Virus record (IMG/VR): IMGVR_UViG_3300025280_000244
Location: 1 to 20,122 of that record
Reading direction: 5' to 3' (one strand)
DNA length: 20,122 nt
Source: a virus
In this document: one piece after another, positions 113-18,243 of the stretch
How the letters are laid out: each line of letters begins with the position of its first letter
Numbering within the stretch: the stretch's first letter is position 1
Notes under the pieces: generated by a model
What the model was told of the DNA's origin: nothing
Databases searched by the model: none
The model's input: the letters and a program-made list of their open reading frames with translations, nothing else
Translations under genes and position numbers: made by a program

Positions 113-154
113 AAAGTTATTTTTTTTAAAGTTAGGGGTTTTCTGTAACAAAAA

Positions 155-264
155 GAAAAAAAGAGAGGCGGTAGGCTCTCTAAACAACGCGGGAACAACA
201 ACAACAACACACACGTGGGTGTATTGAAGAAAGTATAGAGTCGTTAAGAAACCTACCGCCTCTC
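155..264 (-). terminator. Intrinsic terminator after the capsid gene, with two alternative stems (T-phi position)
   Basis: Read on the minus strand, GAGAGGCGGTAGG (264-252) is perfectly complementary to CCTACCGCCTCTC (175-163), which is followed by a T-rich tract (161-151). The two arms are 76 nt apart. A compact hairpin with arms AGAGAG (181-176) and CTCTCT (167-162) and an 8-nt loop uses the same 3' bases, so the two structures exclude each other. Both would end at the same T tract. The site between capsid and tail genes is that of the T7 T-phi terminator. The large loop contains a (GTT)5 run and an AACGACTCTATAC stretch. Confidence 0.8.
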
Positions 265-310
265 GGGGTAGAAGTAATCGCAATAAATAATCAGCGTTGC
301 TGACTTCTTG

Positions 311-8713: not shown

Positions 8714-10672
8714 TTAATGGGTAGCGGCCCACGAAGAACCAACTTTATATTCTCCATCGAGCGGGCATCGGAATTTGAACTCACGACCAGCAGATTTGAT
8801 CGCTTCGACCCCAGCTACACCGACTTTGTGGGCGAGTTTCGGAGAGGCTTCAAGCTGAATCTCATCGTGAATGTTGGCGATAAAAGCAAAGTCCTTGCCC
8901 CACACAAGTCCGGCCTTGATAAGGCTATCGTATTGAATCACCGCAGCCCTTTTCATGATGATCGCACCCGCTGATTGGAGAAGGGTGTTCAGGGCCGCGT
9001 GGGGGCTCCGTATGGTCAGTTTACGCCCGTCGATACCAATGAGATACCCACGGTTATCTGCGGTCCGTTCTACGACCTTCTTCAAGGTGAACAAAGCTGG
9101 AATTTTTTTCAAAAACTTTTCACGAAACTCCTTGCCCAACTTTGCATTCCTTCCTCGTCCAAGGATGTAGGCTAGGTGACCGTCGCCAGCCCCATAAAGG
9201 AACGCGTAGTTCCAAGTTTTCGCACAATCTCTGCCGGTGCCGTGGTTGGACGGAAACGAATACTTCTCCTTTGGTCCCAACCCAAGAGCATCGCAGGTAA
9301 CAAGGTGAACGTCGGCCTCCAGCAGAGTCTTTGCATAAACACCATTATCGTAAAGCGCGAGGTAATGGGCCAGGCACCTCAGTTCTAATCCAGACGCATC
9401 CCAACCCACCTGAACCTTACCTTTGGACGGCCCAAATAGACTGCGGCACTCTTTGCCATAAGGTGAATACACGGCTGGCACCTGAGCAATGTTAGGTCTA
9501 TTGTGTGTGCATCGACCAGTCACAGTGCCGTTGGAATTTACCGATCCATAAATGCGACCATTGCGTTGGAGCTGCAACCAGGCGGTATCCCCCTCAGCCA
9601 GCATACTGATTCGTTTTCCAACCATCAGATACTCGGCCAGTTTAGTGGACTCTGAATACTGCAATGATTTGAGAATTGTCTCCGTCAATTGCGGTTTACC
9701 ACCATCAGTAAAGATATCGGGTTTCCACCCGTACTTTTCAGTCAACCGTTCGGCAATCTGATCATGACTGGCGGGGTTGAAGGGGTGTTCTTTGGTCTTA
9801 AGTGGCCCTTTGATACACCGCTTTCCCGGAAGTTTGACTCCCCGATCCCTTAATACCTTTTCAAGATCACCCTTGGTCTTTGCCCGACACTCTTCCCCGG
9901 AGTCATCGACCGCAATCCAATACTGTGGACTCTTCATGATCTCCACTCGGGGTGGAAAAACCTGATGAAGTTCCTCTTCGATTTCAGCCCGACGCTTCGA
10001 AAGTTTTCCGTAAAACTGTTGACCGGCTTTGACATCAAACGCGAACCCGTAATTCTCCTGCCTGGCCATAAGAAATTTAAAATCGTGCTCCAGCTTAAGA
10101 CATGGCTGGCTGTACTTCTTAGCCTCGCAAACCTGCATGAGCTGCACCACGATTGCCACATCGGATACACACCGGTCCTCCATTTCAGAAGTCCACCGAC
10201 TCCAAATGGATATGTCCGCTCCGACCTTGTCGATGCCCAAGCGATACCCCCAGCACTCCACGCTTTGACTGCCGTATTTAGGGCCTCCATTGGGGTTCTT
10301 CGGGAAGTCTTTGGCGTTACGATAGACTTTGTAATCGGCGTCAAAAAGCTCGGTAAAAATCACAGACCCCATGGTCAGGGTGTCGAGAATATCGCCGCGA
10401 AAGTTCCATCCGGGATATATCTTTTTGATGGCCCAGTAATCGAACCCTATTGAGTTGTGGCCAACTATCTCCTTGGCGCGTTGGAGCATTTCCAAGCCGT
10501 CGGATATCGATCCAGATTTTGTGTCGACCCTTTGATTGTTGAATCGATAATACTTCTCCGCGACGGGATCGTAGATCACCACACAATGGAGCTTGGTTAT
10601 GCTATCAAGAAGACCATCGGTCTCGACATCAAAGAAGAGACGACGATACCGGAAGTAACGACTACTACTCAA
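8714..10672 (-). CDS. Family A DNA polymerase (T7 gp5-like)
   Basis: This 652-residue replicative polymerase has a 3'-5' exonuclease domain: Exo I 'FFDVETDG' (D15, E17), Exo II 'GHNSIGFDYW' (D78) and Exo III 'CVSDVAIV' (D171). The polymerase motifs follow: A 'VGWDASGLELR' (D425), B 'RDCAKTWNYAFLYGAG' (R481, K485, Y489) and C 'NIHDEIQLEA' (H602, D603, E604). All catalytic residues are present. The start is TTG, overlapping the stop of the previous gene in TTGA. No other start lies before Exo I, so TTG seems genuine and translation is probably coupled. The segment around 270-300, between Exo and palm, lies where T7 gp5 has its thioredoxin-binding loop, but I cannot confirm host thioredoxin use. 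Confidence 0.96.
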   Translation of the reverse strand: MSSSRYFRYRRLFFDVETDGLLDSITKLHCVVIYDPVAEKYYRFNNQRVDTKSGSISDGLEMLQRAKEIVGHNSIGFDYWAIKKIYPGWNFRGDILDTLTMGSVIFTELFDADYKVYRNAKDFPKNPNGGPKYGSQSVECWGYRLGIDKVGADISIWSRWTSEMEDRCVSDVAIVVQLMQVCEAKKYSQPCLKLEHDFKFLMARQENYGFAFDVKAGQQFYGKLSKRRAEIEEELHQVFPPRVEIMKSPQYWIAVDDSGEECRAKTKGDLEKVLRDRGVKLPGKRCIKGPLKTKEHPFNPASHDQIAERLTEKYGWKPDIFTDGGKPQLTETILKSLQYSESTKLAEYLMVGKRISMLAEGDTAWLQLQRNGRIYGSVNSNGTVTGRCTHNRPNIAQVPAVYSPYGKECRSLFGPSKGKVQVGWDASGLELRCLAHYLALYDNGVYAKTLLEADVHLVTCDALGLGPKEKYSFPSNHGTGRDCAKTWNYAFLYGAGDGHLAYILGRGRNAKLGKEFREKFLKKIPALFTLKKVVERTADNRGYLIGIDGRKLTIRSPHAALNTLLQSAGAIIMKRAAVIQYDSLIKAGLVWGKDFAFIANIHDEIQLEASPKLAHKVGVAGVEAIKSAGREFKFRCPLDGEYKVGSSWAATH

Positions 10673-12650: not shown

Positions 12651-13097
12651 CTACTTTTCACCATCGGCCCGTAGGCCGGTGTTCGGGACTACCTGCACCA
12701 CCCGATCGTCCCACAGCTCGATCATGTCCTCATCTTTATTGGCGACGATCTGGAGGGACGGTAGATTACACCGAAGGCGTAGCCAGCGGTGGATTAGACG
12801 GCGTTGTATAGCTGGCTGCACTGAGTTCGGGGAGCCGACTCGTGCTGTGAGCACCTTTACGGTTATGCCCTCGTCCAGCCAATCGTGTACCCGCCGCACC
12901 ATGCGGTCGATAGGTTCACCTATGTGATCATAGCCTCGCCACCCCTCCGATCGCGCCAATGTGCCATCCAAATCCACCCCGATCCAGCGGTTAGCGTGCT
13001 GCCGTCGGGACTCAATCGCGTGTTTGCGCTGCTTCGTGAGCGGGTGCTCCTGCTGCATCAAGTATTGTTCCGGTACTATTTTTGTCGTTGCAGCCAT
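12651..13097 (-). CDS. HAD-superfamily phosphatase-like protein
   Basis: This is a 148-residue product from the ATG at 13097, which overlaps the endonuclease gene by 22 nt. A longer frame to 13148 lies wholly inside the endonuclease gene. HAD motif I is 'IGVDLDGTLA' (D42, D44), followed by 'HIGEPIDRMVRRVHDWLDEG' and motif II 'VKVLTARV' (T84). Near the end, 'VANKDEDMIELWDDR' supplies the motif III lysine and motif IV acidic pair. This compact form without a large cap occurs in many phages and hydrolyses phosphate esters such as nucleotides or DNA 3'-phosphates. The substrate here is unknown. Its position between endonuclease I and primase suggests nucleotide salvage or DNA-end repair. Confidence 0.8.
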   Translation of the reverse strand: MAATTKIVPEQYLMQQEHPLTKQRKHAIESRRQHANRWIGVDLDGTLARSEGWRGYDHIGEPIDRMVRRVHDWLDEGITVKVLTARVGSPNSVQPAIQRRLIHRWLRLRCNLPSLQIVANKDEDMIELWDDRVVQVVPNTGLRADGEK

Positions 13098-13510
13098 GCG
13101 TCTGGAATCAATCGGTGACACCACTTGATGTCGTGCTTGGTGCACCACTCACCGTAGGTGGTCCGTGATTTTTTGGAGATTTTTACCTCGGAATTCTGAA
13201 AAACGATTCGGATGTCCATCTCTGGATACTGCACTTTGATCGCAATATGTTTGGCTCGATCTCGCGGTGAGAAAACACCCTTCGCTTCCAGTATAATACC
13301 ACTCTCAAGAATGAAGTCGGGTAGATAAGTATGCTCAAGCTTATAGGGTATGGTCTTGTCCCGGGGCTCGAACTCGTGGGCGACCCTCCGAAGTTGGAGG
13401 GCCACCCTGGATTCCCATCGTGAACGATACTTACCCGTTCGAATTCCTCGAGAAGGCTTGGCAAGAGACCTCCGGCTGCCGGAGTTTCGTCTCGCGTCAG
13501 AAATCGCCAT
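13076..13510 (-). CDS. Endonuclease I, Holliday-junction resolvase (T7 gp3-like)
   Basis: This 144-residue protein comes from the ATG at 13510, which overlaps the SSB stop by 14 nt. A start six codons earlier is also open. The catalytic set is visible: E33 in 'SRWESRVALQL', D65 in 'TYLPDFIL', then E75 and K77 in 'IILEAKG'. The D-10-E-2-K spacing is the same as T7 D55, E65, K67. T7 endonuclease I resolves branched DNA during packaging and helps degrade host DNA. A basic N-terminal extension ('RRNSGSRRSLAKPSRGIR') precedes the core and may bind DNA. Confidence 0.93.
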   Translation of the reverse strand: MAISDARRNSGSRRSLAKPSRGIRTGKYRSRWESRVALQLRRVAHEFEPRDKTIPYKLEHTYLPDFILESGIILEAKGVFSPRDRAKHIAIKVQYPEMDIRIVFQNSEVKISKKSRTTYGEWCTKHDIKWCHRLIPDAWLQRQK

Positions 13511-14195
13511 CGGACTTACCCCCGGCAAAAATCAAATCGTCGGTCTCGGTCTCTGTCTCGCTTTCAAACCCATCACCAGAGTCGTCCGTTTCACCTTCAT
13601 CAGCACTCCCTTCGGGTTCCTCGTATTCATAACCCTCTTCGGCGTCGAACCCAAAAGCTCCTGCGTCGGGGCCCTGCCACTCCTCAAGCTTAATCACCTG
13701 CACGGCCCGCAACCGTAACGACAAGCCCGCACCCACTAACCCCGTATAGAAGCCGGAGGTCTCTGTACAGACTTTGATTAGGGAACCGCCCGAGATCCGA
13801 ACTTTAGTTGGATCGATGATGGAACCACGCGCGTCGAAGCACACTGGCCGCTGTTCAAACTCTGCGGTCTCAGTTTTCACGTGGGCTTTAAGCTTGAAGT
13901 TGAACTGGATGTTTCCCGTAAGCTCACCCTCGTCGTTCTCCTCGGCACTCCACGGTTTGTCCGCGAGCTTGAGCTTCTTCCTCTTATGGGTCTGGCACTG
14001 CGCTTTGTAATTTGCCTCGTAAATCTTCTCAAGTTTATCGAGAAACGGTTTGGCTTCCTCCTCGGGAATCAGCAGTTTGACAGTGTAAACACCGGCGGCG
14101 TCAAACTGTGTGTCAGGTACGTCCAATCTCGGCCAGAGGGCCACACCGACTGGCGAAACTATTCTATTTTTCTGTCGTTTGTTGTCGTTGTCCAT
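13497..14195 (-). CDS. Single-stranded DNA-binding protein (T7 gp2.5-like)
   Basis: This 232-residue protein matches the size of T7 gp2.5. The N-terminal OB-fold begins 'RIVSPVGVALWPRLDVPDTQ' and continues with 'GVYTVKLLIPEEEAKPFLDKL'. A later strand is 'ISGGSLIKVCTETSGFY'. The C-terminus is a long acidic tail (about 180-232, rich in D/E with E-T repeats) ending in 'SDGDF'. In T7 the acidic tail with terminal Phe recruits polymerase and primase-helicase and is regulated by competition with DNA. The gene overlaps both its neighbours, the 88-residue protein upstream and endonuclease downstream, suggesting coupled translation. Confidence 0.93.
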   Translation of the reverse strand: MDNDNKRQKNRIVSPVGVALWPRLDVPDTQFDAAGVYTVKLLIPEEEAKPFLDKLEKIYEANYKAQCQTHKRKKLKLADKPWSAEENDEGELTGNIQFNFKLKAHVKTETAEFEQRPVCFDARGSIIDPTKVRISGGSLIKVCTETSGFYTGLVGAGLSLRLRAVQVIKLEEWQGPDAGAFGFDAEEGYEYEEPEGSADEGETDDSGDGFESETETETDDLIFAGGKSDGDF

Positions 14196-14430
14196 CTTTA
14201 CTTCGGTTTATGTTGGTTGATGTTGGTTTACTCAAATAGTTATAAATCAGTCCGTTATTAAGAAGTGTTTGAAGAGTCTCTTTGTGCCAGTCGCTGGAGT
14301 GCTCAACAATCCCGTGGTCGAACAGGTATTGCCAGGCCTCAATAATATTCGATTCGTTCCACTCGTCGGCGTCTGAATTTACGATGTCCACCGCTAGATC
14401 GGCATCAAGTTCTACGTTTTTATATTTCAT
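14164..14430 (-). CDS. Conserved small phage protein, DUF7417-like pattern
   Basis: This 88-residue protein has 'MKYKNVELDADLAVDIVNSD' at the start and 'ESNIIEAWQYLFDHGIVEHS' followed by 'TLLNNGLIYNYL'. Short proteins with 'EAWQ.L.D.G.v..LqgWyg......LI..GLI' are common in early and middle regions of phages, from memory DUF7417. Function is unknown and no catalytic residues are visible. The last 30 residues (Asn/Thr/Lys/Gln-rich) extend over the SSB start by 32 nt. The gene follows the cloverleaf-like element, and ACCCC lies 11 nt before its ATG. Confidence 0.65.
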   Translation of the reverse strand: MKYKNVELDADLAVDIVNSDADEWNESNIIEAWQYLFDHGIVEHSSDWHKETLQTLLNNGLIYNYLSKPTSTNINRSKDGQRQQTTEK

Positions 14431-14445
14431 GGATTACTTTAGGGG

Positions 14446-14581
14446 TGGAGTGGGCCGGAATCGAACCGACATCTCTTCTTGTTATTTCGCCGACAAAACG
14501 AGTAAAAATCGGCGGTGCCCAAGAAGCGCATATTCCAAGTCGAAGTTCGCGCGAACCACGGCTCTCTCATGCTGCCACTCC
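14446..14581 (-). ncRNA. tRNA-like cloverleaf with enlarged D and anticodon loops (candidate)
   Basis: A 136-nt minus-strand segment can be drawn as a tRNA core. The acceptor GGAGTGG (1-7) pairs fully with CCACTCC (129-135), followed by A. A 4-bp D stem GCAT/ATGC (10-13 with 51-54) comes after two linker bases. One base then leads to an anticodon-type stem CTTCTTG/CAAGAAG (56-62 with 101-107). A 4-nt variable loop follows, then a canonical T arm GTCGG-TTCGATT-CCGGC (112-128). The D loop is 37 nt instead of about 8-11. The anticodon loop is 38 nt and holds a hairpin CGCCGA/TCGGCG. CCA is not encoded (ACC follows the acceptor). It overlaps a 33-codon frame, so it may instead be only a tRNA 3'-end remnant next to a small gene. 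Confidence 0.4.
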
Positions 14582-14583
14582 AT
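14482..14583 (-). CDS. Possible 33-residue small protein overlapping the cloverleaf-like element
   Basis: The ATG at 14583 lies 7 bases after the previous gene's stop, the tight spacing normal here, and the frame ends with TAA at 14482. It encodes a peptide beginning MEWQHERAVVRANFDLEYAL, alternating charged and aliphatic residues, and ending in FLLVLSAK. Codon choice looks ordinary for this genome. No family is recognised. It competes with the RNA interpretation of the same bases: if it is real, the upstream half of the cloverleaf is coincidence and only the T arm plus acceptor (14446-14470) needs explaining. Confidence 0.4.
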   Translation of the reverse strand: MEWQHERAVVRANFDLEYALLGHRRFLLVLSAK

Positions 14584-14590
14584 AAAAAGG

Positions 14591-14845
14591 CTAATTAACC
14601 CAACAGGTGTTGCCGTCGTCCTCCCGCTCGGGAGAATGGGCAAGATCGTTCTCGGCCACTTGAATTCCAAGGAACTCCCGACGGTTGGTCACCTCCGCGA
14701 AGTACTGGCCCGCCCCCATGTAGTAGAGAAGGGTCACATTCGTTCCGCTTTTGGTACGAGTCGGATAGTTCATTTTGTCCGGGTTGCGGCTGACATCATA
14801 TTTTCCGTCGTGTCCCTCCGCGCTGCTTGCTGCCGCTGTTACCAT
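14591..14845 (-). CDS. Small hypothetical early protein
   Basis: This 84-residue product comes from the ATG at 14845. It is preferred over the ATG at 14887 because an AGGGGGA Shine-Dalgarno-like sequence lies 6 nt before it and because the -10 box of a sigma-70 promoter (14883-14888) overlaps the longer start. The sequence is hydrophilic, with 'AASSAEGHDGKYDVSRNPDK', then 'YPTRTKSGTNVTLLYYMGAG' and 'RREFLGIQVAENDLAHSPERE'. The middle has a 'Y.t.tksgt.vtllyy' strand pattern suggestive of a small beta fold. I recognise no family. Placed just after the RNA polymerase gene under a probable host promoter, it resembles T7 gene 1.x proteins that act on the host early. That role is inference. Confidence 0.6.
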   Translation of the reverse strand: MVTAAASSAEGHDGKYDVSRNPDKMNYPTRTKSGTNVTLLYYMGAGQYFAEVTNRREFLGIQVAENDLAHSPEREDDGNTCWVN

Positions 14846-14882
14846 CGTTTTGTCCCCCTGGTTTGGTGTGAATAAAACCCCA

Positions 14883-14910
14883 ATCATACATTTTTTGCCG
14901 AGGTTGTCAA
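14883..14910 (-). promoter_or_regulatory. Sigma-70 promoter just downstream of the RNA polymerase gene
   Basis: The minus strand has a perfect -35 box TTGACA (14910-14905), a 16-bp spacer and TATGAT (14888-14883), five of six bases of the -10 consensus. Transcription would start near 14876, giving a leader of about 30 nt to the ATG at 14845 with its AGGGGGA ribosome binding site. It lies immediately after the RNA polymerase stop (14915). Confidence 0.75.
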
Positions 14911-14914
14911 CTGG

Positions 14915-17407
14915 TCATGAAAAAAAGAAGTCGCTTTCAAGGATGCTTCGGGCATCAAGGGTGCCATAGCTCGGAATGTCTGGCAGTAAAGTGTTGATCG
15001 GCAACTGCTTCTCGATCTCGGTCTTAAATCGGGCCAACAAATCCACCGTGAAAATATCGGTAAAAACACGTCGTGCGCTGGCCATTAACACATCGACATC
15101 GGGTGCCAGCGCGCCATAGCTATCATGGATCATCGCAAACTGATGGACTCCAGCAAAGACAGCTGTACATATGGTTTTGTGAAGAGCCGCCGCATCCAGT
15201 GAGTGGACAAAATTGGGGCTGATACCGTTCACCTGTCGGGTTCGATTCATGATGGTTGGTGACCACTCTCTGAGTTTGACCTTCTGGATTCGATCACCAA
15301 GAGCCGTCTTCACAGTTCGATGCGTCCACGATTTGTAATTTTGGGAAACCGGGAATCCGGTCGGCGTGGTCCACTTGACGGGCAGCCCAGATTTCGTGGT
15401 GATCTTTGCAACTTCCTGAAGCCACCTCATGGCCTCCCTGGGTCGCCCCACCACCACATGGATTGCATCCCACACCCGGCGGGCCAGAAACGTCCCCAAC
15501 GACCTTACTTTTGTAGCATCATCTTGCTCAAATAATTCGTCCATGGATCTGGCTCGAAGTTCGTCTTTGAACCACTCCTCTATGTATCCCATGCAACTAT
15601 AATAAGTACCGCCGTAGGGAAGTACCATAACTGGCCTTTTGACAGCCTTCCGGTTCACCCCGAAGTCGAGCCAGAACTGAGCCATGGATTTCCCGCCATC
15701 ATCATCGGTGAAACCCGTGGTGGCTTCCTCCTTAAGTTTAGTCATGACAACATCGGCAACATCCTGATACACATCAGAGGGTGTTGGACCTCCCGAACAG
15801 TTAGTAGCACGACCGCACACTTCATCGCGCATCAGAAGGGATAGAATCTGCAATCCGTTGTTGGAGGCATCCAGACAAACAGGTAGACTGGTTTGAAACC
15901 CATACCCCTCCCGTTGAAAGTCAGCCCACTCAAAGCACCAGGTCAAGAACTGCCAGGGGCTGTCAGCTTGGGACCACCATGATGAGGTGTTGATTGGATC
16001 TTTAGCTGCTTTCGATATATCACTCTCGTTGTCTTGTACCCACTTAACCCGCTCCTCAAAGGTTACCTTGTCATAGCCCCACAGGTTTGCCCCGTAGACT
16101 GCCAACCAGTCAGCTTCTGATTTGCGCCTGATGGGTTTCGCGTCGGAAAACTTCAGCAGTGCCCGAGAGAAGTCCGGTCCCTGAGGCTGAAGAAAGTAAG
16201 GTACACAATAGGTTCGCCCCCGAAAGTCCAACTGGTAGGGGAAGTAAAACTTCTTTTCATCACGAAATCTATCGGCTAACCAGAAGGTTTTCAGAACATG
16301 AATCCGTTGACTGCTGATCGACACATTGAGGTCGTAGACCCTGGACGCCTTACGCCGCCAATCTCTTCGGACATCGTAGTCAGTTTTTATATTGTCTGGT
16401 GTGGGTGGAAGCGGCAGGTTATCCTTGGGCGGTAGGCCCGCGAATTCATGTCCAATATCCCAAAAGTACTTCATAACATCCAGAGTCCTACCCTCGACCT
16501 TCCACCCGGTTCTCTGAAGCGTGTTCACCGCCTGATAAACCTCGGGCATGGCTTCGGGATCGAACGTAACATCGGTGATGTGTATGTCCCGCTTGACCAA
16601 ACCAAACGCCTGGAAGTCTTCTGGATCATACCCCCCACCATATGGTGTCACCCACTCGATCGGTGGTTCAACCGTTGGAAGCCAAAAGGGGTCCATCATT
16701 TCGGCCCAGAGGTGGAAGTTGGCAATCCAGCTTAAAGCGTCCGGGACTGCCATGAGATGGTTTGTGGCTTTCTTCCCCCCGGTGTTGTGCAGGTAGATGG
16801 TTGAAACCAGGCCAGTGACTTTTTGAAAGATATCAATAAGCACCATCCCAATTTTAACCTTGTCGGCTTGGGCCCACCGGTGAAAGGAGGCAGCTCCTGA
16901 GTGGTATCCACCCGCCAGCTTCTCCGTTCGGTTCATACTCAGGATTATAACCGTTCGCTTCCTGGCATAGGATGACGACTGATCAACCTGGGCCCGTAGT
17001 TTTCTCCACAGTTTTGGCTCGTTGAGTTTGAGGAACTGAAAGCGGACTTCATCTTCAACGAGGTTTCCTATCTTATTACAGATAGCGGCGTAGGGCTTCT
17101 TGATGGAGATCCCATCCATGATACCCTTTGAGGCGATGAATCCCAACAACTCCGGGTCAACCTGTACAATGAACCTGTGGGCACTGTGTGAAACCCCAGG
17201 CTTACCCCGGTTCTCTGCGGTTTTGATCCAATCTTTGATGCCTTCTACATAGGGTAATAGGATGTGGCTCATCAATTGACGTCCGTGGGATGCCGAGGTC
17301 TCAATTTCCCGATCTACAGCATCGTTCACTCGCTTCCAGTAACGGTGACGCCCCTTGGAGAGCATTTCTGCATTCAGCTCGTCCTGTTTATTGTTGTTCT
17401 TCGCCAT
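14915..17407 (-). CDS. Single-subunit phage DNA-directed RNA polymerase (T7 gp1-like)
   Basis: This 830-residue protein is shorter than T7 RNA polymerase (883). The core motifs are intact. 'YQLDFRGRTYCVPYF' (about 391-405) corresponds to the T7 DWRGR motif. 'LPVCLDASNNGLQ' (D513) matches T7 D537. 'NRKAVKRPVMVLPYGG' (K590, Y598) matches T7 K631 and Y639. 'GISPNFVHSLDAAALHKTI' (728-746) and 'FAMIHDSYGALAPD' (D762) match T7 D812. The C-terminus 'ILESDFFFS' parallels T7 'ILESDFAFA', whose terminal residues contribute to catalysis. The specificity-loop region (about 680-725) differs from T7, so its promoter differs too. The ATG at 17407 overlaps the upstream gene by 20 nt. This enzyme would transcribe the middle and late genes to its left. 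Confidence 0.97.
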   Translation of the reverse strand: MAKNNNKQDELNAEMLSKGRHRYWKRVNDAVDREIETSASHGRQLMSHILLPYVEGIKDWIKTAENRGKPGVSHSAHRFIVQVDPELLGFIASKGIMDGISIKKPYAAICNKIGNLVEDEVRFQFLKLNEPKLWRKLRAQVDQSSSYARKRTVIILSMNRTEKLAGGYHSGAASFHRWAQADKVKIGMVLIDIFQKVTGLVSTIYLHNTGGKKATNHLMAVPDALSWIANFHLWAEMMDPFWLPTVEPPIEWVTPYGGGYDPEDFQAFGLVKRDIHITDVTFDPEAMPEVYQAVNTLQRTGWKVEGRTLDVMKYFWDIGHEFAGLPPKDNLPLPPTPDNIKTDYDVRRDWRRKASRVYDLNVSISSQRIHVLKTFWLADRFRDEKKFYFPYQLDFRGRTYCVPYFLQPQGPDFSRALLKFSDAKPIRRKSEADWLAVYGANLWGYDKVTFEERVKWVQDNESDISKAAKDPINTSSWWSQADSPWQFLTWCFEWADFQREGYGFQTSLPVCLDASNNGLQILSLLMRDEVCGRATNCSGGPTPSDVYQDVADVVMTKLKEEATTGFTDDDGGKSMAQFWLDFGVNRKAVKRPVMVLPYGGTYYSCMGYIEEWFKDELRARSMDELFEQDDATKVRSLGTFLARRVWDAIHVVVGRPREAMRWLQEVAKITTKSGLPVKWTTPTGFPVSQNYKSWTHRTVKTALGDRIQKVKLREWSPTIMNRTRQVNGISPNFVHSLDAAALHKTICTAVFAGVHQFAMIHDSYGALAPDVDVLMASARRVFTDIFTVDLLARFKTEIEKQLPINTLLPDIPSYGTLDARSILESDFFFS

Positions 17408-17855: not shown

Positions 17856-17867
17856 AAAACAAGGGGT

Positions 17868-17999
17868 ACTACGGAAACTACGGAAACTACGGAAACTACG
17901 GTGTACCTGTGGTGTACCTGTACAAACAACTACACCGGTAATATTAATGAGGTTTAAAACCACAGGTTTAACCACGGTGTAACTACAGGTTTAACTACA
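17868..17999 (+). repeat. Short tandem repeats upstream of the early operon (9-, 11- and ~12-bp units)
   Basis: On the plus strand, ACTACGGAA occurs three times plus a partial copy (17868-17901). GGTGTACCTGT occurs twice head to tail (17900-17921). After a 29-bp gap come four units of 11-14 bp with a GGTTTAACTACA core (17951-17964, 17965-17975, 17976-17987, 17988-17999). The units share an ACTAC element (GTAGT on the minus strand). They could be iterons, protein-binding arrays or slippage products. Confidence 0.9.
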
Positions 18000-18026
18000 G
18001 GTACACCTGTTGGAAACTTGTGTCAA
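17997..18026 (-). promoter_or_regulatory. -35 box with overlapping palindromic operator candidate
   Basis: The minus strand has a perfect TTGACA (18026-18021). Seventeen bases on, the -10 position (18003-17998) reads TACCTG, a poor match that lies within the palindrome ACAGGTACACCTGT (17997-18010, perfect 6-bp arms). The palindrome half ACAGGTACACC is the exact complement of the GGTGTACCTGT units at 17900-17921. A weak -10 covered by a palindrome fits a regulated promoter. The regulator is not in the window. Confidence 0.5.
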
Positions 18027-18116
18027 GCCTTAATTGTTTAAGGGTGATGTCGTCCATCTTCTCTCTAAGGGGAGTCCCCATTGGAAACCAAGGGGTGGTG
18101 GTGGTTCACAGAGCTG

Positions 18117-18243
18117 CGCTTACACGTATGCCCACGCTTACACGTATGCCCGTAGGTGTGCCCGTAGGTGTGCCCGCTAGAATCCCGTGGTGAATCCCGA
18201 GAGAATCCGTGGTGAAATCCCGTGGTGAAATCCCGTGGGAATC
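18117..18243 (+). repeat. Short tandem repeats after the methyltransferase stop (18-, 12- and ~13-bp units)
   Basis: On the plus strand, CGCTTACACGTATGCC occurs twice at 18-bp spacing (18117-18150). CCCGTAGGTGTG occurs twice (18149-18172). AATCCCGTGGTG-type units of 11-13 bp occur about four or five times (18181-18240). A related ATCCGTGG even reaches into the last codons of the methyltransferase. The units share a CCCGT(A/G)G core. Together with 17868-17999, tandem repeats make up most of this 388-bp gap. The part between (about 18030-18115) holds nothing else recognisable. Confidence 0.9.

What the first reader, a model, noticed from the sequence alone, without database searches (positions are those of the whole stretch)
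14446..14581. Cloverleaf-capable RNA with a canonical tRNA end but giant D and anticodon loops
Seven of seven acceptor pairs, a textbook T arm, a D stem at exactly the right place, a one-base spacer and an anticodon-type stem all line up, yet both inner loops are about 30 nt too long, and the anticodon loop holds its own hairpin. No ordinary tRNA fits. It might be a tRNA mimic, a tmRNA-like RNA, a decoy for tRNA-targeting defences, or a tRNA with insertions.
Basis: partly seen in the sequence, partly recalled or inferred. Interest (0 to 1): 0.72.

Follow-up and report, generated by a model that had tools for sequence, protein, structure and literature searches.

The report
tRNA-mimicking RNA in a T7-like phage
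A T7-like phage fragment from a metagenome carries, between two of its genes, a 136-base stretch that folds like a transfer RNA but has two oversized arms and no usable anticodon; it is probably a non-decoding tRNA look-alike of the sort known in phage T4, and nothing here shows yet what it does.

Summary
The element lies on the MINUS strand (14581 to 14446), in line with the genes of a T7-like phage, between a small gene downstream of the RNA polymerase and an 88-codon ORF before ssb. Acceptor (7/7 Watson-Crick), tRNA junction spacing, canonical T arm and A73-CC are present; the D and anticodon arms are enlarged by hairpins. The full descriptor occurred 0 times in 160 Mb of matched random sequence, and the minimum-energy fold is this cloverleaf. 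It is not a tRNA or tmRNA by Rfam or default ARAGORN, lacks an anticodon loop, and its 3' end matches no genome of 84,980 species. Only one near-identical relative is held, so covariation could not be tested. Best precedent: T4 RNAC (139 nt, expressed, function unknown), for which I found strong covariation for an acceptor/two-long-arms/T-arm fold; the two are not sequence relatives. Best reading: a non-decoding tRNA-like RNA or mRNA punctuation element cut out by host tRNA-processing enzymes (structure shown, processing inferred). New variant of a known kind; moderate interest. Side finding: other phages carry 109-134-nt tRNA genes with anticodon-region inserts sharing a GCAA motif, some beside DUF2828 proteins.

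The parts
14446..14581 (-). whole tRNA-like element, 136 nt (RNA position p = window 14582-p)
   Evidence: sequence
14575..14581 (-). acceptor stem, 5' strand GGAGTGG (U at -1)
   Evidence: sequence
14447..14453 (-). acceptor stem, 3' strand CCACTCC; 7/7 Watson-Crick
   Evidence: sequence
14443..14446 (-). discriminator A73 followed by CCC (RCC present, CCA not encoded)
   Evidence: sequence
14568..14572 (-). D stem 5' strand (GCAT + G.U)
14528..14532 (-). D stem 3' strand
14537..14564 (-). imperfect hairpin that fills the D loop (GGTTC-GCGC-GAACT core)
   Evidence: probability about 0.48
14520..14526 (-). anticodon-type stem 5' strand CTTCTTG
14475..14481 (-). anticodon-type stem 3' strand CAAGAAG; 7/7 Watson-Crick
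14488..14514 (-). hairpin inside the anticodon loop (7-bp stem, 13-nt loop)
   Evidence: probability 0.99
14454..14470 (-). T arm GTCGG-TTCGATT-CCGGC
   Evidence: sequence; Rfam hit to this arm only
14482..14583 (-). overlapping 33-codon open frame, no Shine-Dalgarno
   Evidence: translation; coding score intermediate; no relatives
14439..14570 (-). overlapping 43-codon open frame, scores as non-coding
14883..14910 (-). sigma-70-like promoter TTGACA-16-TATGAT (11/12) upstream of the 98-codon ORF and the element
   Evidence: 0.18 expected per window
14591..14887 (-). 98-codon ORF just upstream (coding by codon usage; true start may be 14846)
14164..14430 (-). 88-codon ORF just downstream, followed by ssb (13497-14195)
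14915..17407 (-). T7-like RNA polymerase gene (context)
   Evidence: phrog_414 E 3e-224

Best explanation
A phage-encoded, non-decoding tRNA-like RNA. It is transcribed as part of the polycistronic mRNA that runs from the small gene behind the RNA polymerase into the ssb/replication genes. Its 12-bp acceptor/T stack with A73-C-C and U at -1 is what host RNase P and the 3'-end/CCA enzymes recognise, so they most likely cut it out: this punctuates the mRNA and leaves a stable RNA of about 136 nt. The enlarged D and anticodon arms replace the decoding end, so it cannot serve as an ordinary tRNA and would act as a structural mimic, comparable with RNAC of phage T4. Shown here: the fold, its rarity by chance, strand, place, lack of a normal anticodon loop. 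Inferred: transcription, RNase P cutting, CCA addition, stability, and any function in trans.
For: Complete tRNA junction geometry found 0 times in 160 Mb of random sequence; minimum-energy fold equals the cloverleaf and survives flanks. A73-CC lies at the right place although the descriptor did not ask for it. A covariance model made from the element alone has, apart from itself, only tRNA-sized genes as best hits in 0.94 Mb of phage DNA, at least three of them tRNA-Leu. It fills the gap between two coding ORFs, same strand, with an 11/12 sigma-70-like promoter about 300 nt upstream. Precedent: T4 RNAC (139 nt; annotated as a small stable RNA) has a canonical T arm, an acceptor stem and two long arms; 23 of 49 pairs show changes on both sides across 8 T4-like phages against 7.7 expected, and it is expressed, function unknown (PMC9697503; PMC3014915). 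RNase P is known to cut phage RNAs such as M3, C4 and T4 gene 32 mRNA (PMC11143913).
Against: No relative with variation in the element, hence no covariation evidence for this RNA. The D and T arms are only about half populated in the predicted ensemble. CCA is not encoded. The 33-codon frame could be a small gene. No expression data exist.
Confidence: 0.5

Rival explanations
1. A true tRNA gene whose anticodon loop (and perhaps D loop) is interrupted by a short insert or intron, as in the 109-134-nt phage tRNA genes found here in other contigs.
For: ARAGORN with introns allowed and threshold 97% calls tRNA-Thr(UGU) with a 53-nt insert exactly at 14443-14582. Giant tRNA genes with anticodon-region inserts exist in other phages (L159, L160, L161, L163, Synechococcus phage B23).
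Against: Those genes keep a normal D arm, and five of seven score 40-51 bits with Rfam tRNA; this element has neither. All seven carry a GCAA motif in the insert, this one does not. The intron fold is 14 kcal/mol worse. ARAGORN calls of this kind occur about 0.2 times per window by chance. Known bacterial tRNA introns are self-splicing group I introns (PMC3400036), which are much longer.
Confidence: 0.14
2. A decayed tRNA gene, or a tRNA-derived attachment site, left over from a temperate T7-like ancestor.
For: Related T7-like phages carry whole tRNA-Leu genes near the integrase or RNA polymerase (LUZ100, Mesorhizobium Lo5R7ANS, several IMG/VR contigs).
Against: All four stems are intact, which decay would not leave. 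No integrase was found beside the polymerase in this record. The 3' 25 nt, and a looser 22-nt form of it, match no genome of 84,980 species. The acceptor differs from the tRNA-Leu genes of the relatives.
Confidence: 0.12
3. A small protein gene (33 codons from 14583) whose DNA folds into a cloverleaf by accident.
For: The frame scores between genes and non-genes (28th percentile of true genes, top 9% of open non-coding frames) and starts just behind the upstream gene.
Against: No homologue in phage records; no Shine-Dalgarno; the frame stops inside the anticodon arm and leaves the T arm unexplained; the full cloverleaf is very unlikely by chance.
Confidence: 0.1
4. A decoy or regulator that acts in trans on tRNA-binding proteins, for example tRNA-targeting nucleases or modification enzymes.
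For: The mimic has tRNA ends but no anticodon loop to cut; phages are known to counter anticodon nucleases (T4 Pnkp and Rnl1, PMC3400036); the window holds a polynucleotide-kinase-like phosphatase ORF (12651-13148).
Against: No defence target, no partner protein and no expression data; TROVE and DUF2828 proteins are absent from the 20 kb held.
Confidence: 0.1

Closest known systems
RNAC (species 1 RNA) of phage T4 and relatives
   Same: Phage RNA of 139 nt with an acceptor stem formed by its own ends, a canonical T arm and two long arms in place of D and anticodon arms; not a decoding tRNA. Its structure covaries and it is expressed with unknown function.
   Different: No significant sequence or model match: the RNAC model gives 7.5 bits here, less than real tRNAs get. 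RNAC has two U.U mismatches in the acceptor in seven of eight phages (paired in the eighth) and other junction spacing, and lies in a tRNA array.
Phage tRNA genes with anticodon-region inserts (L159, L160, L161, L163, Synechococcus phage B23), some next to DUF2828 proteins
   Same: 109-134 nt, intact acceptor and T arm. Four share the GGAGTGG/CCACTCC acceptor, but only because the search pattern asked for it.
   Different: Normal D arm, five of seven over the Rfam tRNA threshold, GCAA motif in the insert, tRNA arrays and a DUF2828 protein nearby in several.
Bacterial Y RNAs of the YrlA type (tRNA mimics bound by Ro60); known to me from memory, the paper is not held
   Same: Non-decoding RNA with a tRNA-like domain, reported also in phages (from memory).
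   Different: No Rfam match and no TROVE or DUF2828 gene in the record; here the ends of the RNA form the acceptor stem.
tRNA-Other, a pseudo-tRNA of Bacillus cereus (PMC3399842)
   Same: tRNA-like element that does not decode and sits inside larger transcripts.
   Different: Chromosomal, flanks a genomic island; near-normal tRNA size as I recall it (not tested).
Phage RNase P substrates: M3 RNA, C4 antisense RNA, T4 gene 32 mRNA (PMC11143913)
   Same: Non-tRNA phage transcripts that RNase P cuts.
   Different: Cleavage is shown for those, only predicted here.

Membership tests
tRNA (Rfam RF00005 / ARAGORN) | covariance-model score over threshold; ARAGORN call at default | tested here: not met
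   no RF00005 match listed at E<=10; ARAGORN 0 genes
tRNA (Rfam RF00005 / ARAGORN) | 7-bp acceptor, canonical T arm, R73 | tested here: met
   sequence
tRNA (Rfam RF00005 / ARAGORN) | 7-nt anticodon loop with U33 | tested here: not met
   38-42-nt loop with its own hairpin; G at position 33 in the minimum-energy fold
tRNA (Rfam RF00005 / ARAGORN) | aminoacylation and decoding | not testable with these tools
   needs experiment
tmRNA (RF00023, RF04321) | model match beyond the T arm | tested here: not met
   9 bits, 17-nt T arm only; permuted model 11.2 bits, threshold 47
tmRNA (RF00023, RF04321) | G3.U70 alanine identity | tested here: not met
   position 3-70 is A-U (sequence)
T4 RNAC family | match to a covariance model of RNAC from 8 T4-like phages | tested here: not met
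   7.5 bits; ordinary tRNAs reach 11-16 bits
T4 RNAC family | acceptor + two long arms + canonical T arm, about 140 nt | tested here: met
T4 RNAC family | stable RNA seen in infected cells | not testable with these tools
   no expression data for this phage
Ro60/DUF2828-associated tRNA-like RNA | TROVE or DUF2828 gene nearby | tested here: not met
   none in the 20-kb record; the record is a fragment
Ro60/DUF2828-associated tRNA-like RNA | GCAA motif seen in the inserts of the others | tested here: not met
Prophage attachment site (attP) in a tRNA gene | exact match to a host tRNA 3' end | tested here: not met
   0 matches in 84,980 species; the true host may be missing
Prophage attachment site (attP) in a tRNA gene | integrase gene next to it | tested here: inconclusive
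   none among the proteins scanned around the polymerase; the record is a fragment
RNase P substrate | acceptor/T stack of 12 bp with RCC 3' of it | tested here: met
   sequence
RNase P substrate | cleavage at -1/+1 | not testable with these tools
   needs in vitro assay

The most novel reading that the evidence does not exclude
The RNA is the first example of a class of tRNA mimics in T7-like phages: a processed, CCA-tailed RNA of about 136 nt whose decoding end is rebuilt into two protein- or RNA-binding arms, and which titrates or redirects host tRNA enzymes or tRNA-targeting defences early in infection.
Probability: 0.15. Interest if true: 0.8.

Novelty: new variant of a known kind. Interest (0 to 1): 0.45.

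Why it matters
Non-decoding tRNA look-alikes of phages have been known since T4 RNAC, still without a function. A second, apparently unrelated example in a small T7-like genome, where space is costly, suggests that the design is useful to phages in general. It makes a direct test possible: whether phages use tRNA-shaped elements to cut their mRNAs or to occupy tRNA enzymes.

Tried and rejected
tmRNA and permuted tmRNA. tRNA by ARAGORN at default, and tRNA-Thr with a 53-nt intron. attP: exact and degenerate 3'-end searches in 84,980 genomes and in IMG/VR. Close relatives by polymerase, primase, 88-aa and 98-aa ORFs in IMG/VR: only IMGVR_UViG_3300009602_002702, 99.66% identical over 10.6 kb and without change in the element; no DNA similarity in phage records. 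A model of the element finds nothing but itself and ordinary tRNA genes in the phage loci held. Y-RNA reading: no TROVE or DUF2828 in the record. T4 RNAD as a comparator: no cloverleaf. Promoter- and terminator-like sites other than the one at 14910-14883 are at chance level.

Full report
What is there. The window is a 20,122-base viral record, with nearly all genes on the minus strand: capsid, scaffold, head-tail adaptor, exonuclease, DNA polymerase, primase/helicase, endonuclease, ssb (Gp2.5-like), T7-type RNA polymerase and an Eco57I-like methylase. The polymerase is 32-37% identical to those of pelagiphages, roseophages, Mesorhizobium phage Lo5R7ANS and Pseudomonas phage LUZ100. The element lies on the minus strand, 14581 to 14446, in the 160-base gap between a 98-codon ORF and an 88-codon ORF; by codon usage both flanking ORFs look coding.

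Anatomy. Acceptor GGAGTGG/CCACTCC pairs 7/7; two bases; D stem GCAT/ATGC; a 37-base D loop that folds into an imperfect hairpin; one base; a 7/7 anticodon-type stem CTTCTTG/CAAGAAG whose interior carries a further 7-bp hairpin; four bases; T arm GTCGG-TTCGATT-CCGGC; A73 and then CCCC. The 3' side of the D loop keeps GG next to the D stem, but C8, G14 and U21 depart from the usual tRNA tertiary set (read from the sequence). There is no 7-base anticodon loop and no U33.

Is it chance? A descriptor with tRNA junction spacing and free arm lengths finds this place only, and none in 160 Mb of trinucleotide-Markov sequence of the same composition (630 T arms, 10 perfect acceptors, 0 complete). That is fewer than about 1 in 1,300 windows at the 95% bound. 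Minimum-energy folding gives the cloverleaf unforced (-51.2 kcal/mol, z -2.7), and it persists with 10-120 bases of flanks; the acceptor, anticodon and inner hairpins are near certain, D and T arms about half. Across the genome only 1.2% of minus-strand windows of this size fold as stably. The descriptor was made after the fact, which weakens the number, but A73-CC was not part of it.

What it is not. Rfam lists no tRNA match; tmRNA models see only the T arm. ARAGORN finds nothing at default. With introns allowed and the threshold at 97% it calls tRNA-Thr(UGU) with a 53-base intron at exactly this place, but random sequence gives 12 such calls in 1.2 Mb at 95%, and the fold is 14 kcal/mol worse. 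The last 25 bases, and a degenerate 22-base form, match no genome of 84,980 species, so an attachment site is unlikely, although the host may be missing from that set. No integrase was found among the proteins scanned, whereas several relatives have it directly upstream of the polymerase, in LUZ100 together with a whole tRNA-Leu gene.

Relatives. Only one relative is held, IMGVR_UViG_3300009602_002702, 99.66% identical over 10.6 kb and identical in the element. It speaks against an assembly error but cannot show selection on pairs. This is the main gap.

The T4 comparison. RNAC of T4 (NC_000866.4 70908-71046, annotated 'small, stable RNA; species 1 RNA') is 139 nt. It folds into an acceptor with two U.U mismatches, a long arm, a second 10-bp arm and a canonical T arm (z -4.6). 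I aligned eight T4-like phages: 92% of cells pair, 23 of 49 pairs have changes on both sides against 7.7 in shuffles, and every slid version collapses. In Yersinia phage fHe-Yen9-01 the two acceptor mismatches become pairs. So RNAC is a tRNA-shaped RNA with giant arms. It is seen by Northern blot as a late RNA of unknown function (PMC9697503; see also PMC3014915). The window element resembles it in anatomy but is not a member of its sequence family: 7.5 bits against the RNAC model, less than real tRNAs.

Likely working. Established knowledge: bacterial RNase P uses the acceptor/T stack and the 3' RCC; both are present, with U at -1. RNase P cuts several non-tRNA phage RNAs (PMC11143913). A strong sigma-70-type promoter (TTGACA-16-TATGAT, 0.18 expected per window) stands about 300 bases upstream, and no terminator-like site lies between. 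I therefore infer that the element is cut out of a polycistronic mRNA, which separates the upstream small gene from the 88-codon ORF, ssb and replication genes, and leaves a stable RNA. Whether the RNA then does something in trans is open.

A related side finding. A last pattern scan of IMG/VR with the same acceptor at enlarged spacing brought four other contigs with a well-paired T arm and the acceptor at 118-134 bases. These are tRNA genes with a normal D arm and an insert of some 30-70 bases in the anticodon region, several above the Rfam tRNA threshold. In L159 and L163 they stand beside a DUF2828/DUF7788 protein, whose relatives in phage records are often called 'RNA-binding protein'; Synechococcus phage B23 has such a tRNA gene too, annotated 'tRNA-Undet'. 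All seven inserts hold a GCAA motif, the window element does not. They show that phages keep enlarged tRNA-like RNAs more often than annotation suggests; they look like a separate group.

Verdict. Observation confirmed; tRNA mimicry supported by structure; function inferred only. New variant of a known kind, interest 0.45.

Noticed in passing
L159:9483-9600 and 9703-9825 (-), L160:7842-7966 (+), L161:13907-14029 (+), L163:9598-9731 and 9737-9860 (+), L167 (Synechococcus phage B23):4869-4977 (+): Phage tRNA genes of 109-134 nt with inserts of some 30-70 nt in the anticodon region; all seven inserts contain GCAA. They may be short introns or Y-RNA-like binding modules; bacterial tRNA introns of this size are not known to me.
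   Followed up: partly
L163:9996-11537 (+), L159:9924-11402 (-), L165 (Listeria phage P100) 2992-4512 and 5771-7054: DUF2828+DUF7788 proteins (Ro60-like architecture is my inference) stand next to tRNA arrays, in P100 also near an annotated tRNA splicing ligase; 682 phage records encode a relative.
   Followed up: partly
L151:1409-1547 (T4 rnaC) and alignment A3: T4 RNAC shows strong covariation for a tRNA-like fold; its homologue in Enterobacter phage SonariX is annotated as tRNA-Met. Rfam has no matching family at threshold.
   Followed up: yes
window 17857-18151: Cluster of short direct repeats (AAACTACGG units, ACTACAGGT-like units, two tandem CGCTTACACGTATGCCC) around the start of the 195-codon ORF and before the methylase gene; possible binding or origin region.
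   Followed up: no
window 137-272 (-): Most significant local RNA fold of the window (z -4.9), near the capsid end; it may be a terminator-type hairpin (GAGAGGCGG...AGGCTCTC).
   Followed up: no
window 12651-13148 (-): ORF similar to polynucleotide kinase families (phrog_415, E 8e-7); a possible RNA-repair link.
   Followed up: no
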